A DNA stretch of 64,000 bases from the NCBI RefSeq assembly GCF_900107625.1, contig NZ_FNQK01000015.1, positions 1-64,000 on the forward strand, given 5' to 3'. The notes below the pieces were generated by a model. It was not told where the DNA came from, did not search any database, and saw nothing but the letters and a program-made list of their open reading frames with translations. Source of the stretch: Bizionia paragorgiae (GTDB taxonomy: Bacteria > Bacteroidota > Bacteroidia > Flavobacteriales > Flavobacteriaceae). Of the stretch, positions 30,654-35,143 are shown one piece after another. How positions within the stretch are numbered: position 1 is the stretch's first letter; every line of letters begins with the position of its first letter. Both the position numbers and the translations under genes were made by a program.

Positions 30654-31355
30654 ATGTGTACCGTAACTTTATTTCCAGTAAATGCTACCGATTTTATTTT
30701 AACGTCCAACCGTGACGAATCTCCAAATCGTCTTGCATTGGCGCCACGAATATATACAATGGGTTCTGCGGAAGTACTGCTGCCAAAAGATGAAATTTCT
30801 GGTGGAAGCTGGATAGGCGCAAGTTCTAAAAAAAGAGTGTTGTGTTTGCTCAATGGCGGAAGTATTCCATATATAAGAAAAGCATCTTACAGAAAAAGTA
30901 GAGGAGAAGTAGTTCGCGATTTTTTAACGGCTGATATGCTTTTAGAAACAATTGAAGCTTATAACCTTAGCGATATAGAGCCTTTTACATTAGTAATTTC
31001 CGATTGGAACACGAGATTAAATTATTATGAATTTATTTGGGACGGACTAGCAAAACAGCTCACTCTATTACCACCCGAACCCCGAATATGGTCTTCTACT
31101 ACCTTATATACGCAACAGCAAAAGGACCTGAGAAAAGATTGGTTTGAAACGTTTAAATCTAATAACGTATTAAATGCGCAATCGTTATTAAAATTTCACC
31201 ACACCGCTGGAAACGAACACCCAGATTTTGGAGTGATTATGGATCGCGGTTTCGTGAAAACCACAAGTATTACTCAAGTTATAAAAAATAAAAATAAGAT
31301 AGCAATGCGTTTTGAGAGTTTGGATTCTGGGGAGGTGATAGAAAAAGAACTTTAG
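30654..31355 (+). CDS. NRDE-family protein
   Basis: A 233-residue protein of the NRDE (TANGO2-like) family, named after its N-terminal motif. The start MCTVTLFP places Cys2 at the N-terminus after Met removal, as in N-terminal nucleophile hydrolases, followed by ILTSNRDESPNRL near residue 18 and GGSWIGASSKKRVLCLLNGG. Eukaryotic homologues affect Golgi organisation and haem/lipid handling; bacterial function is not settled. It is oriented away from pruA and toward the lipoprotein array, with no obvious partner. Confidence 0.88.
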   Translation: MCTVTLFPVNATDFILTSNRDESPNRLALAPRIYTMGSAEVLLPKDEISGGSWIGASSKKRVLCLLNGGSIPYIRKASYRKSRGEVVRDFLTADMLLETIEAYNLSDIEPFTLVISDWNTRLNYYEFIWDGLAKQLTLLPPEPRIWSSTTLYTQQQKDLRKDWFETFKSNNVLNAQSLLKFHHTAGNEHPDFGVIMDRGFVKTTSITQVIKNKNKIAMRFESLDSGEVIEKEL

Positions 31356-31377: not shown

Positions 31378-31920
31378 TTATTGTGTAAAAATGGTATCGA
31401 AATAACCTTCTCTAATTTGCACTATTTCTCCCGTTACAGGATTTAAAATATCAAACCAAAAAGTTCCTGATACAATGTTATTTGTAAAATCTAATTTTGT
31501 TATAGTTAATTCTCCAGAGTTATTTATATCTGTAGTACTAGACTCACCCTGAGTAGTCGATATGCTAAAAAAAGCACTACCAGCCGCATTTCCATTAGTT
31601 TCTTCTATTAATTGTAAAGTTTCTCCTTCCATTATAGTTTTTGCTATAGTTCCAAATGAAATACTCCATGGTAAATTTGTATTTTTATAATTATTATCAA
31701 TACCGCTGATACTAAAGTAGTATTCACCATCAACGTTTTGATAAAAGCAATTAAAAAATCCACCACTGGTGTCTATAAAATTTTGTCCATTTACCTTACA
31801 AGCAAAAGTGCCTGCACCACTTTGTGTAATTGGTGGTAAAGGTTGGTCATCGTTATCATCATCTTTATTGCAACAGGTTAATAACCCGCAAATGGAAAAT
31901 AGTATTAGTAATTTTTTCAT
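31378..31920 (-). CDS. Array lipoprotein 5 (type B)
   Basis: A 180-residue lipoprotein, last of five tandem paralogues in transcription order. The signal ends GLLTCC and is followed by NKDDDNDD, an acidic run that suggests surface export. The body has the family opening LPPxTQSGAGTFACKVNG and the type B C-terminus ELTITKLDFTNNIVSGTFWF...IREGYFD...FTQ shared with the two genes at 33306-34448. It is the most diverged type B member (Lys-Val in place of Leu-Leu after the conserved Cys, longer centre). I think the family corresponds to DUF6252; no function is known to me. Confidence 0.85.
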   Translation of the reverse strand: MKKLLILFSICGLLTCCNKDDDNDDQPLPPITQSGAGTFACKVNGQNFIDTSGGFFNCFYQNVDGEYYFSISGIDNNYKNTNLPWSISFGTIAKTIMEGETLQLIEETNGNAAGSAFFSISTTQGESSTTDINNSGELTITKLDFTNNIVSGTFWFDILNPVTGEIVQIREGYFDTIFTQ

Positions 31921-31946
31921 AATATCTATTTTTTATTGGTTAATGT

Positions 31947-32459
31947 TTATGGGATATATTGTAAGTCAAAGCGACCATTAGTAATTGAAATATCATCACA
32001 ACTATTCGTTGCTGTGGAAAAATCAAATGTTCCAGAAATTATGAAATTTGTTTGATCAAAATTTGATATTGTTATTATACCATTTAGAGTGCTTGGGTAA
32101 TCATAATAGCACCCATTTCCATTGTTGATATATAAAGATTGATTAGTTGGTGTATTGGTTAAGTTATAACTTGTATTTTGGGTAATAACTTCACTAGCTC
32201 TTATTATTACACGTATATCCATATCCGAATTATCTATGCCACCACCAATTTGTAAAACGCCTCCTTGGTAAATAGCTGTTTGTTGAGAAGTGTTAGTAAC
32301 ATTTATTGGTTCCCCATTAACTAAAAAACCAAAGGTATTAGCACCAGTTTGTGTTGCAGGTGGCAATTGGTCTATAGGGTTTGTTGGTTGGTCGTCGTCG
32401 TTTTTGTTACAGCAACTTAATGTAAGTGAAACTGTTAGTAGTAAAAGTAGCTTTTTCAT
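31947..32459 (-). CDS. Array lipoprotein 4 (type A)
   Basis: A 170-residue lipoprotein. The ATG at 32459 gives the signal MKKLLLLLTVSLTLSCCNK followed by NDDDQ; an upstream in-frame ATG at 32510 would bury this signal. After the shared linker PTNPIDQLPPATQTGA the type A body begins NTFGFLVNGEPINVTNTSQQ and ends FIISGTFDFS...ITNGRFDLQYIP. It is clearly the sister of the gene at 32712-33230: ends nearly identical, centre strongly different. Its signal peptide, however, differs from that sister. The start lies inside the remnant frame at 32407-32685. Confidence 0.85.
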   Translation of the reverse strand: MKKLLLLLTVSLTLSCCNKNDDDQPTNPIDQLPPATQTGANTFGFLVNGEPINVTNTSQQTAIYQGGVLQIGGGIDNSDMDIRVIIRASEVITQNTSYNLTNTPTNQSLYINNGNGCYYDYPSTLNGIITISNFDQTNFIISGTFDFSTATNSCDDISITNGRFDLQYIP

Positions 32460-32685
32460 AGTTTTGTTTTTTTGATTTAGTAACAAAGTTAGCGGTAGAT
32501 AGGTTGCCATTACAAGCTTCTATATTTGCAAAACGAACTCCAAATTCTTTAAGGTAGCCTGTGGTAACTTTTGCCTTATCTATATTACCAAATACATATT
32601 GCATACGATTGGCATAAGATGAGTTTTGAGCTTGAACATTGTAGAATGTTACAAAGCAAAATAGCAGTAGTAAAAATTTTTTCAT
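32460..32685 (-). pseudogene. 5' remnant of a larger secreted protein gene
   Basis: The frame opens with a good signal peptide (MKKFLLLLFCFVTFYNVQAQ) and continues YANRMQYVFGNIDKAKVTTG, an N-terminus I associate with large secreted or surface proteins of flavobacteria. After about residue 68 (LSTANFVT) the frame runs into the leader of array lipoprotein 4 and ends within it at 32407, so the native remainder is missing. It looks like a gene broken when the lipoprotein cassette expanded. A short genuine peptide cannot be excluded. Confidence 0.6.
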
Positions 32686-32711
32686 AATATCTGTTTTTTA
32701 TTGGTTAATAT

Positions 32712-33230
32712 TTATGGTATATATTGTAAGTCAAAGCGACCATTGGTTATATTTATGTTTTCACAATCATCAGTTACCGTTGAGAATTCAAATGTGCCAG
32801 ACACAATAAAGTTTGTAGTATCTATATTTGTTAATGTCATACTACCTTGGTATGTATCTTCATAAGCATAATTACAATTTATTGTTCCTTGTCTTTTTCT
32901 GAATTTAGCAGCATGAACAGGAAAATTCGTTAAATCATAACTAGTATTGATATTAATAGGGTCTTCCATTATAATACTTACACTAATATCTCTTTCAGTA
33001 TTATCAATACCACCTCCAATCTGTAAAATGCCACCTTGATAAATAGCAACTTGCTGTGAAGTGTTTGTAACATTTATTGGTTCTCCATTAGCTAAAAAAC
33101 CAAAGGTATTAGCACCTGTTTGAGTTGCAGGTGGTAATTGGTCTATTGGGTTTGTGGGTTGGTCGTCGTCGTTTTTGTTGCAATTGCTTACTATAAGAAG
33201 CATTGCGAATGCTAAAAGTAGATTTTTCAT
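32712..33230 (-). CDS. Array lipoprotein 3 (type A)
   Basis: A 172-residue lipoprotein. Signal peptide and linker (MKNLLLAFAMLLIVSNCNK then NDDDQ, PTNPIDQLPPATQTGA) are identical to those of lipoproteins 1 and 2, but the body is type A, like lipoprotein 4: NTFGFLANGEPINVTNTSQQ at the front and SGTFEFS...ITNGRFDLQYIP at the end. The residue before the lipid cysteine is Asn, unusual for a lipobox but tolerated in Bacteroidota. It thus joins the signal of one subfamily to the body of another, a mosaic. Confidence 0.86.
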   Translation of the reverse strand: MKNLLLAFAMLLIVSNCNKNDDDQPTNPIDQLPPATQTGANTFGFLANGEPINVTNTSQQVAIYQGGILQIGGGIDNTERDISVSIIMEDPININTSYDLTNFPVHAAKFRKRQGTINCNYAYEDTYQGSMTLTNIDTTNFIVSGTFEFSTVTDDCENINITNGRFDLQYIP

Positions 33231-33305
33231 CGTTTTGTTATATTATTTACTCGGTTTTTTTTAGATATAATTTTTGTGATTTGTTCCAGCAAAACGAGTT
33301 TTATT

Positions 33306-33839
33306 TTATTGGGTAAATTGCATATCAAAGCGTCCTTCACGTATTTGATGAACAACTCCATTGTAATCTTCTATATCGTACCAAAATGTTCCTGATACTA
33401 TGTTATTAGTAAAGTCAAGTTTTGTGATAGTTAATTCACCTGTGTAATCTTGGGACGTATAGTTTAAGAATGTATTAAAGAAATATATACCACTAGCATT
33501 TCCATCTATATTTGCAGAAAGATTATATGTATTTCCTTGATTAATTTCTAGATTTTCTGTCCCAATACCCAATCTAATGAGGTTGTTTTCTGAATTTCTT
33601 TTATTAGCTTGAAGAGAAAAGTAATAACCTCCATTAACAAATTGATAGACACAATCTAAAGGGTTTTGGCTAATACCTGGCAAAAAAGGTTCTCCATCTA
33701 ACAAACAACCAAATGTATTAGCTCCTGTTTGTGTTGCAGGTGGTAATTGGTCTATTGGGTTTGTAGGTTGGTCGTCGTCGTTTTTGTTGCAATTGCTTAC
33801 TATAAGAAGCATTGCGAATGCTAAAAGCAAATTTTTCAT
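33306..33839 (-). CDS. Array lipoprotein 2 (type B)
   Basis: A 177-residue lipoprotein, one unit of an exact 609-bp tandem duplication with the gene at 33915-34448. The first 75 residues and the last 45 are almost identical between the two copies. The centre (plus-strand 33461-33595, about 45 codons) is strongly substituted without any length change. Signal MKNLLLAFAMLLIVSNC plus NKNDDDQ points to a surface lipoprotein. Conserved cysteines in FGCLLDGE and LDCVYQF may form a disulfide. Function unknown. Confidence 0.87.
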   Translation of the reverse strand: MKNLLLAFAMLLIVSNCNKNDDDQPTNPIDQLPPATQTGANTFGCLLDGEPFLPGISQNPLDCVYQFVNGGYYFSLQANKRNSENNLIRLGIGTENLEINQGNTYNLSANIDGNASGIYFFNTFLNYTSQDYTGELTITKLDFTNNIVSGTFWYDIEDYNGVVHQIREGRFDMQFTQ

Positions 33840-33914
33840 CGTTTTGTTATATTATTTACTCGGTTTTTTTTAGATATAATTTTTGTGATTTGTTCCAGCA
33901 AAACGAGTTTTATT

Positions 33915-34448
33915 TTATTGGGTAAATTGCATATCAAAGCGTCCTTCACGTATTTGATGAACAACTCCATTGTAATCTTCTATATCATACCAAAAAGTTC
34001 CTGATACTATGTTATTAGTAAAGTCAAGTTTTGTGATAGTTAATTCACCTGTGTAATCTTGCGAAGTATATGTTTCAAGAGTTGCATAAGAGTATCTTCC
34101 ATAAGCATTCCCATCAATATTTTCTAGTAAGTTAAATACTTCATTTTCTTCAATCTCTAGAGACTTTGTAGAGAGGGAGAGAGTTATTCTATTATTTAAA
34201 TCATCTCTTTTATTAGCTTGAAGAGAAAAGTAATAACCTCCATTAATAAATTGATAGACACAATCTAAAGGGTTTTGGCTATTACCTGGCAAAAAAGGTT
34301 CTCCATTTAATAAGCACCCAAATGTACCTGCACCAGTTTGTGTTGCAGGTGGCAATTGGTCTATTGGGTTTGTGGGTTGGTCGTCGTCGTTTTTGTTGCA
34401 ATTGCTTACTATAAGAAGCATTGCGAATGCTAAAAGTAGATTTTTCAT
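33915..34448 (-). CDS. Array lipoprotein 1 (type B), first gene of the array
   Basis: A 177-residue lipoprotein, the promoter-proximal member of the five. It carries the same signal and linker as lipoproteins 2 and 3, the FGCLLNGEPFLPG opening, and the type B end TITKLDFTNNIVSGTFWYDI...REGRFDMQFTQ. The variable centre corresponds to plus-strand 34070-34204. The 75-bp spacer after it (33840-33914) is repeated identically after lipoprotein 2 (33231-33305). A perfect inverted repeat lies 39 bp upstream of the start and could act as operator or leader hairpin. Confidence 0.87.
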   Translation of the reverse strand: MKNLLLAFAMLLIVSNCNKNDDDQPTNPIDQLPPATQTGAGTFGCLLNGEPFLPGNSQNPLDCVYQFINGGYYFSLQANKRDDLNNRITLSLSTKSLEIEENEVFNLLENIDGNAYGRYSYATLETYTSQDYTGELTITKLDFTNNIVSGTFWYDIEDYNGVVHQIREGRFDMQFTQ

Positions 34449-34756: not shown

Positions 34757-35143
34757 TTAGTTTAGCGCAAAAGGTGCACTTAATTTAAAGGTAGGAATTT
34801 CGACATTAAAATACCTGTTGGTAGTGAAATCTAACATTTTATAATGACCGTTCATTGCGCCAAAAGGAGCGCTTAATAAACATCCTGAGGAATAGGTGTG
34901 CGATTCGCCCGGTTTTAATACTGGTGTTTTGCCAACAACGCCTTCTCCGGTAACAATTTCGAGAGCGTTAAGTGCGTCGTAAATATTCCAATGTCTCGCT
35001 AATAACTGCACCTCATTTTTACTTTGGTTTTCTATAGTTATTTGGTACCCAAAAGCATAGTGGATTTTATAGTCTTTATAAAATGTCCCTTCAAAATGTG
35101 TGTCTACAGATATTTTAATACCTTGAGTTACTTGTTGCACCAT
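34757..35143 (-). CDS. apaG: ApaG-domain protein
   Basis: A 128-residue ApaG protein, a small fibronectin-III/immunoglobulin-like beta sandwich. The family core is clear: YAFGYQITIENQS near residue 28, VQLLARHWNIYDA, and GVVGKTPVLKPGESHTYSSG (about residues 72-91), followed by GAMNGHYKM. The name comes from linkage to apaH in enterobacteria; it was once linked to Co2+/Mg2+ efflux, but a biochemical function is not firmly known. Same strand as the T9SS plug gene, separated by about 100 bp. Confidence 0.93.
   Translation of the reverse strand: MVQQVTQGIKISVDTHFEGTFYKDYKIHYAFGYQITIENQSKNEVQLLARHWNIYDALNALEIVTGEGVVGKTPVLKPGESHTYSSGCLLSAPFGAMNGHYKMLDFTTNRYFNVEIPTFKLSAPFALN

What the first reader, a model, noticed from the sequence alone, without database searches (positions are those of the whole stretch)
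31378..34448. Array of five paralogous surface lipoproteins with conserved ends and a hypervariable centre
Five small lipoproteins lie in tandem on one strand. Two of them are an exact 609-bp duplication (33231-33839 and 33840-34448), with spacers and both gene ends nearly identical. The central 135 bp (33461-33595 and 34070-34204) are heavily substituted with no indel. In the protein, conserved positions persist inside the variable block in an alternating, beta-strand-like pattern (I-x-L-x-x-x-T, LEI, NIDGNA). Lipoproteins 3 and 4 show the same layout. The acidic run after the lipid cysteine suggests display on the cell surface. This pattern suggests diversifying selection or recombination of a ligand-, phage- or antibody-exposed segment.
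Basis: partly seen in the sequence, partly recalled or inferred. Interest (0 to 1): 0.72.

Follow-up and report, generated by a model that had tools for sequence, protein, structure and literature searches.

The report
Shuffled lipoprotein partners of secreted esterases
A marine bacterium carries five side-by-side copies of a small surface protein whose middle part appears to be swapped between copies and even between genera, and whose relatives sit next to a secreted lipid-cutting type of enzyme, which suggests a stock of antidotes kept after the toxin gene was lost.

Summary
Five tandem lipoproteins are real; all belong to NCBIfam's Riean_0653 family. The 609-bp unit is in exact register but not an exact copy: 523 of 609 bases match. 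L4 and L5 share near-identical ends around a heavily substituted centre whose synonymous sites are saturated (pS 0.78, pN 0.42), so this is no recent point-mutation diversification. It is a mosaic: old centres between homogenised ends, seen in 27 of 27 comparable within-locus pairs (13 loci). Two Bizionia centres are 98-100% identical in DNA to copies in another genus, Neptunitalea; a purM-like gene there is 76%. Outside the coordinates: at 34 of 79 sites a long secreted alpha/beta-hydrolase, usually with a type IX secretion tail, follows the lipoproteins; 15 more have only fragments. The window keeps a 74-codon stump, and no full copy was found in its genome. Best reading: orphan partner, most likely immunity, lipoproteins of a T9SS-exported esterase, reshuffled by homologous recombination like TipC and EsaG arrays. 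Immunity is inferred; a published Riemerella mutant with lost haemolysis leaves an activating role open.

The parts
31378..31920 (-). L1, Riean_0653-family lipoprotein (180 aa); centre nearest to an Oceanihabitans copy (L068)
   Evidence: (167 bits, cut-off 57)
31947..32459 (-). L2, Riean_0653-family lipoprotein (170 aa); centre identical in protein and 98% in DNA to a Neptunitalea chrysea copy
32464..32685 (-). Stump of the secreted hydrolase gene: its first 74 codons, 95% identical in protein to the Neptunitalea gene; the ORF runs on to 32407
32712..33230 (-). L3, Riean_0653-family lipoprotein (172 aa); directly upstream of the stump
33231..33305 (.). Spacer between L4 and L3, identical to 33840-33914
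33306..33839 (-). L4, Riean_0653-family lipoprotein (177 aa)
   Evidence: (180 bits)
33461..33595 (-). Variable centre of L4; lies in the stretch of residues 71-130, which holds 5 of the 11 predicted strands
33840..33914 (.). Spacer between L5 and L4, identical to 33231-33305
33915..34448 (-). L5, Riean_0653-family lipoprotein (177 aa); 98.9% identical to the copy at the same place in Bizionia saleffrena
34070..34204 (-). Variable centre of L5

Best explanation
The array is a stock of partner lipoproteins for a T9SS-exported serine esterase, most likely immunity proteins, kept after the esterase gene was lost. SHOWN by sequence: (1) the genes are mosaics of conserved ends and one of many old, divergent centres; (2) near-identical centres occur in different genera with more diverged ends, while ends are alike within arrays; (3) in many relatives the last lipoprotein gene is followed, on the same strand and usually within about 150 bp, by a large alpha/beta-hydrolase, mostly with a T9SS sorting tail; (4) in this genome only a 74-codon stump of that gene was found, while the lipoprotein genes are intact. 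INFERRED: the lipid-anchored beta protein binds the hydrolase through its variable part and protects the cell from the enzyme of neighbours; the centre sets which variant is matched; homologous recombination through the conserved ends lets cells gain and swap specificities.
For: Mosaic: 27 of 27 within-locus pairs with an end at or above 85% identity have centre pS of 0.45 or more (the pairs are not independent). Cross-genus centres at 98-100% DNA identity with ends at 84-96%; baseline purM-like gene 76%. Ends put the five L066 copies in one clade; the centre rejects it (AU p 0.00045); L067+L068 likewise (p 0.0057); the opposite grouping L066_7348+L067 is rejected by the ends (groups chosen after the trees were seen). 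Partner: of 79 sites 34 have a long hydrolase, 15 fragments only, 25 none, 4 a contig end, 1 a cut gene; all 34 frames of 600+ aa found in these loci follow a lipoprotein gene on the same strand; 12 of 18 further loci of my choice have it. GxSxG serine in all 34; PGAP1-like match in 21 of 21 and T9SS tail in 17 of 21 at E<=0.01; esterase-like fold. Orphaning: no full hydrolase found in G000 or G001; of 46 genomes with the lipoprotein family 22 gave none at E<=1e-20, the window's stump counted as none. The orphan L5 is under purifying selection (2 non-synonymous, 9 synonymous changes, p 2e-5). Parallel: TipC and EsaG immunity arrays (PMC9484751).
Against: Riean_0653 transposon mutants of Riemerella anatipestifer lost most of their haemolysis and the lipoprotein ORF alone restored it (PMC7881567): an activating role, not simple immunity. 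The lipoprotein lies upstream, whereas immunity genes often follow the toxin (recalled). Matching of centre to hydrolase is unproven: the adjacent copy fits better than the others for 11 of 16 hydrolases (p 0.21); over all loci adjacent copies are no more alike in the centre than adjacent and non-adjacent ones (0.171 v 0.169); in Neptunitalea a non-adjacent copy fits better. 3 of 8 long hydrolases checked have no lipoprotein beside them. Loci were found through the lipoprotein, so the association is biased in that direction; 25 of 79 sites have no hydrolase trace. Of the 22 genomes without hydrolase, 8 have only weak lipoprotein matches (E 1e-19 to 1e-16), and the genome search scores only part of its candidates. 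For L4 and L5 themselves the centre tree does not reject a sister relation (p 0.207). No toxicity or binding data exist here.
Confidence: 0.58

Rival explanations
1. The lipoprotein is a dedicated helper (foldase, activator or surface anchor) of the T9SS esterase rather than its antidote.
For: Gene order lipoprotein then hydrolase; 30 of 33 hydrolase ORFs start 18-147 bp after the lipoprotein stop. Loss of haemolysis in Riean_0653 mutants, restored by the lipoprotein gene. The genome that I take for R. anatipestifer (exact bioF primer match) has three tandem copies directly before the hydrolase. The Tle/Tli pair of Enterobacter shows one lipoprotein can both activate and neutralise a lipase (PMC10294624).
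Against: 22 of 46 genomes with the lipoprotein family, the window's included, gave no hydrolase at E<=1e-20, and the orphan L5 is under purifying selection. A helper needs no polymorphic centre and no tandem stock (inference).
Confidence: 0.25
2. The proteins are surface antigens or phage/ligand receptors that vary for reasons unrelated to the hydrolase.
For: Sequence consistent with surface display; variable part of a lipid-anchored all-beta protein; weak fold likeness to lipoproteins such as LpqH and factor H binding protein; 25 of 79 sites without hydrolase trace.
Against: Recurrent operon-like coupling to one enzyme family, and enzyme fragments beside lipoprotein genes. Free-living marine hosts make antibody escape unlikely (inference). 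No signal of diversifying selection.
Confidence: 0.12
3. The centre is made variable by a diversity-generating retroelement or a silent-cassette switch.
For: Variable block with sharp edges in a conserved frame; two reverse-transcriptase genes exist on other contigs.
Against: No template copy: the L4 centre matches nothing else in the genome beyond L5 and short chance-level hits. Changes are not adenine-biased (39 of 69 involve A in DNA that is 39% A). Near-identical centres occur in another genus.
Confidence: 0.02

Closest known systems
TipC and EsaG immunity-gene arrays of type VII secretion (Garrett et al. 2022, PMC9484751; abstract, outline and passages seen)
   Same: Tandem non-identical paralogues, homology blocks (in TipC at the 5' and 3' ends, with a variable centre and a lipoprotein signal), recombination through the blocks, link to a secreted toxin. 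The same paper mentions a toxin fragment inside the TsaI array.
   Different: Firmicutes and T7SS, other protein families. Here Bacteroidota, a T9SS-tailed partner, and near-identical centres shared between genera. Immunity is established there, not here; TsaI arrays showed little recombination.
Tle lipases and Tli lipoprotein immunity of type VI secretion (PMC9860674: abstract; PMC10294624: abstract and part 1 of the text)
   Same: Alpha/beta-hydrolase lipase paired with a lipoprotein; in Enterobacter Tli both activates and neutralises, which would fit the Riemerella phenotype.
   Different: Secretion route (T6SS against a T9SS tail); Tli3 fold is three stacked sheets; no sequence or fold relation between Tli and these lipoproteins was tested.
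TANFOR polymorphic toxins of Bacteroidetes (PMC7073777; abstract, outline and passages seen)
   Same: Bacteroidetes toxin-immunity class proposed to use T9SS.
   Different: Toxin domains such as a DNase at the C-terminus; the words lipoprotein and lipase do not occur in its main text. No TANFOR hit appeared in the scans; whether those libraries hold such a model was not checked.
Riean_0653 of Riemerella anatipestifer (PMC7881567; passages and discussion seen)
   Same: Names the NCBIfam family; in the genome taken for R. anatipestifer the three copies found at E<=1e-15 are tandem and lie just before the hydrolase.
   Different: The paper lists it as a hypothetical protein; the words lipase and phospholipase do not occur in its main text.

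Membership tests
NCBIfam NF052634 (Riean_0653 family) | Whole-protein score above the curated cut-off of 57 bits | tested here: met
   All five score 156.5-180.2 bits
Pfam DUF6252 (PF19765) | Score above the gathering threshold of 27.2 bits | tested here: inconclusive
   1 of 5 passes (L2, 29.0); L1 26.7 and L4 15.7 fall short; L3 and L5 give no hit
Recombining immunity-gene array (TipC/EsaG kind) | Tandem paralogues with conserved blocks around a variable block | tested here: met
Recombining immunity-gene array (TipC/EsaG kind) | Sequence evidence of recombination between copies | tested here: met
   Conflicting trees and AU tests; not significant for the L4/L5 pair alone (p 0.207)
Recombining immunity-gene array (TipC/EsaG kind) | Beside a cognate secreted toxin or its fragments | tested here: inconclusive
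   Secreted-type hydrolase or fragments at 49 of 79 sites, stump in the window; that the hydrolase is a toxin is not shown
Recombining immunity-gene array (TipC/EsaG kind) | Lipoprotein neutralises the toxin | not testable with these tools
   Needs an assay
T9SS cargo (hydrolase) | C-terminal sorting domain above its cut-off | tested here: met
   L053 33.3 bits against 27; 17 of 21 relatives match at E<=0.01; copy in the genome taken for R. anatipestifer 24.3 against 23, while one of five scanned (L197) gave none
Tle/Tli (T6SS) | Delivery by T6SS | tested here: inconclusive
   The hydrolases mostly carry a T9SS tail; T6SS genes were not searched for
Diversity-generating retroelement | Template repeat and adenine-specific changes | tested here: not met
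   two RT genes on other contigs

The most novel reading that the evidence does not exclude
T9SS exports a family of lipid-cutting toxins between Bacteroidota, and surface lipoproteins act as their antidotes. The antidote's specificity segment is itself a mobile cassette: a pool of old centres passes between genera by homologous recombination while the ends are kept uniform, so cells collect antidotes after dropping the toxin.
Probability: 0.42. Interest if true: 0.8.

Novelty: new variant of a known kind. Interest (0 to 1): 0.6.

Why it matters
Whether T9SS takes part in fighting between bacteria is open; the authors of PMC7073777 write that their hypothesis, if true, would imply it. This gives a concrete, widespread gene pair to test. 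It also gives a possible reason why an unexplained 'hypothetical protein' is needed for haemolysis in a duck pathogen. And it shows specificity segments shared between genera at near-identity while their frames evolve in concert, a clean case for studying how recombination keeps antidote repertoires diverse.

Tried and rejected
Recent point-mutation diversification: rejected, because synonymous sites in the centre are saturated. Retroelement or silent cassettes: see rivals. Known anti-phage families: no PADLOC hit for L5, L2 or the hydrolase at E<=0.1. Transferrin-binding-protein B model as a first guess: no hit, and the control rang nowhere, so this says nothing. Fold search: the lipoprotein model is confident (pLDDT 90), but Foldseek's best E was 0.04 and VIA-align's best was LpqH at Z 9.1, then YceI 6.8; I draw no function from it. 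The hydrolase model is weak overall (pLDDT 65) and good only in parts. Matching of lipoprotein and hydrolase distances: rank correlations of 0.36-0.63 for the three main domains and 0.16-0.23 for the tail, no stronger for the centre than for the ends, so no proof of specificity. Reverse search: of 30 hydrolase loci 26, with frames of 468-829 aa, had no lipoprotein in the stored flanks of about 1-1.5 kb; two of the four with one are the window and B. saleffrena. Literature: no paper held DUF6252 or Riean_0651, 0652, 0654 or 0655; the listings of the searches for T9SS lipases, lipoprotein chaperones and T9SS immunity showed no title or abstract describing this pair; most of those papers were not opened. 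No bioRxiv and few subscription papers are held.
Full report
What is there. The window lies in a Flavobacteriaceae genome whose nearest named relative in these searches is Bizionia saleffrena. Five lipoprotein genes stand in tandem on the minus strand between 30654-31355 (an NRDE-type gene) and the small gene 34757-35143 (apaG-like), near the nqr operon (the names of these neighbours are mine, by eye). All five lipoproteins match NCBIfam NF052634, the Riean_0653 family, at 156-180 bits. No sixth copy above the family cut-off was found in the genome; two weak matches lie elsewhere (one search scored 47 of 99 candidates).

The L4/L5 repeat. The unit is 609 bp in exact register, with 523 of 609 bases identical. 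The 75-bp spacers are identical; 67 of the 86 coding differences lie in one 135-nt stretch (0 of 20000 shuffles). In the centre pS is 0.78 and pN 0.42; in the 5' part 0.20 and 0.03, in the 3' part 0.13 and 0. A centre with saturated synonymous sites between ends that are nearly identical cannot come from recent mutation of a fresh duplicate. Either the ends were homogenised or the centre was replaced. The centre tree does not reject that the two centres are sisters (p 0.207), so for this pair alone I cannot choose between the two.

The pattern is general. One scan of named genomes gave 78 loci, the best kept of 152 confirmed stretches. With the window they hold 148 family frames; 40 of 79 sites have two or more, fragments and two opposite-strand cases counted. 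Of 130 full-length members, 88 pairs share a locus. The 27 of these with an end at or above 85% identity, from 13 loci, all have centre pS of at least 0.45; pN exceeds pS in one. On a tree of the ends of 35 genes the five copies of locus L066 are one clade, and L067 joins L068. On the centre tree one L066 copy joins L067, and L068 joins window L1; the centre rejects the five-copy clade (p 0.00045) and L067+L068 (p 0.0057); the ends reject L066_7348+L067 and the two Neptunitalea copies as a pair. I chose these groups after seeing the trees. The other AU tests were not significant: L068+window L1 on the ends 0.112; on the centre L4+L5+L049 0.207, three L050 copies 0.133, two L051 copies 0.053, two L054 copies 0.288.

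Transfer between genera. Window L2 and a Neptunitalea chrysea copy share a centre at 98% DNA and 100% protein identity, with ends at 89% and 91%. A B. saleffrena copy and another Neptunitalea copy have identical centres with ends at 84% and 96%. The one housekeeping gene compared (purM-like by eye) is 76% identical over 1158 bases between Neptunitalea and the window's genome. At the same place in B. saleffrena, L5 has dS 0.09, while flanking genes have 0.34-1.6, except the gene at 30654 next to the array with 0.16. The lipoprotein gene just before the stump differs in its centre between the two Bizionia species (35% in protein) while its 5' part stayed 95% identical. So centres travel and ends stay local.

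The partner. In Neptunitalea the last lipoprotein gene is followed 27 bp later by a 1045-residue protein with a weak alpha/beta-hydrolase match and a T9SS tail. The window's ORF 32407-32685 is its truncated start: 74 codons, 95% identical in protein. A profile of this hydrolase, run over all 79 sites, found a long hydrolase at 34, fragments only at 15 (of which L063 and L067 may be whole genes with a frame break or a contig end), nothing at 25, a contig end straight after the array at 4, and one cut lipoprotein gene. In a separate count, all 34 frames of at least 600 residues (from 33 loci, one with two) followed a lipoprotein gene on the same strand. Of 33 hydrolase ORFs, whole or partial, 30 start 18-147 bp behind a lipoprotein stop. 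In 18 further loci from other genomes of the order, picked for their lipoproteins, 12 had it. The serine in GxSxG is kept in 34 of 34, and a histidine and an aspartate are nearly invariant. Foldseek finds esterases (E 1e-7). The reverse search shows the limit: of eight hydrolases longer than 960 residues, five had the lipoprotein and three did not, and 26 of 30 loci from that search, with shorter frames, had none in the stored flanks.

Orphans. Of 393 genomes of the order, 45 have the lipoprotein family at E<=1e-15. Searching these 45 and G001 for the hydrolase gave 25 of 46 at E<=1e-20, one being the window's stump; so 22 of 46 gave none. Of these 22, eight have only weak lipoprotein matches. 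Fragments of either end, and at one site both ends, lie beside lipoprotein genes. L5 between the two Bizionia species, in neither of which a full hydrolase was found, shows 9 synonymous and 2 non-synonymous changes (p 2e-5), so it is still under selection, unless the copy arrived recently from a lineage with the enzyme.

Mechanism. The lipoprotein is predicted with confidence as an all-beta protein; residues 71-130 hold 5 of its 11 strands, with variation alternating along four of them. An acidic run after the lipid cysteine is common in the family (89 of 109 with a lipobox by my rule), which in Bacteroidota often marks surface export (recalled). Tandem copies, conserved end blocks, a variable centre and recombination match the TipC and EsaG immunity arrays, and the same paper reports a toxin fragment inside the TsaI array (PMC9484751). 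I therefore favour immunity against a T9SS-exported lipase-like toxin. Against it stands the Riemerella result: Riean_0653 mutants lost most haemolysis, and the gene restored it (PMC7881567). The genome that I identify as R. anatipestifer (one exact 27-base bioF primer match; primer from PMC6168606, passages seen) has three copies in tandem just before a hydrolase with a T9SS tail and a GxSxG motif, so Riean_0653 is very probably one of them (inference). The Enterobacter Tli lipoprotein, which both activates and neutralises its lipase (PMC10294624), shows that both results can hold together. A test of specificity was inconclusive: the copy next to the hydrolase fits best for 11 of 16 (p 0.21).

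Verdict. A new variant of a known kind, pending a toxicity and binding test.

Noticed in passing
window 30654-31355 and 34757-35143: The two genes bordering the array are less diverged from B. saleffrena at synonymous sites (dS 0.16 and 0.34) than the other eleven flanking genes compared (0.48-1.6), as if recombination tracts spill out of the array.
   Followed up: partly
L061 6662-10452; L073 6004-7791: The hydrolase appears split: an ORF for its N-terminal part, then a lipoprotein gene, then the catalytic part.
   Followed up: no
L157, L159, L160: Long hydrolases without a Riean_0653 lipoprotein lie between a secG-like gene and a groEL-like gene (names by eye) in three genomes, with a different small gene upstream.
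   Followed up: no
L036 11293-11354: B. saleffrena has a second, very short copy of the hydrolase start (about 22 codons) after its last lipoprotein.
   Followed up: no
L037 (Bizionia MAG, G002): The contig ends inside the array, probably an assembly break at the repeats; copy numbers from short-read genomes may be too low.
   Followed up: no
L195 3183-4405: In the genome taken for R. anatipestifer the first two tandem lipoprotein genes also look, by eye, like near-identical ends around a different centre.
   Followed up: no
L197, L198 (G382): One genome carries three separate lipoprotein-hydrolase loci, one with seven lipoprotein frames in a row.
   Followed up: no
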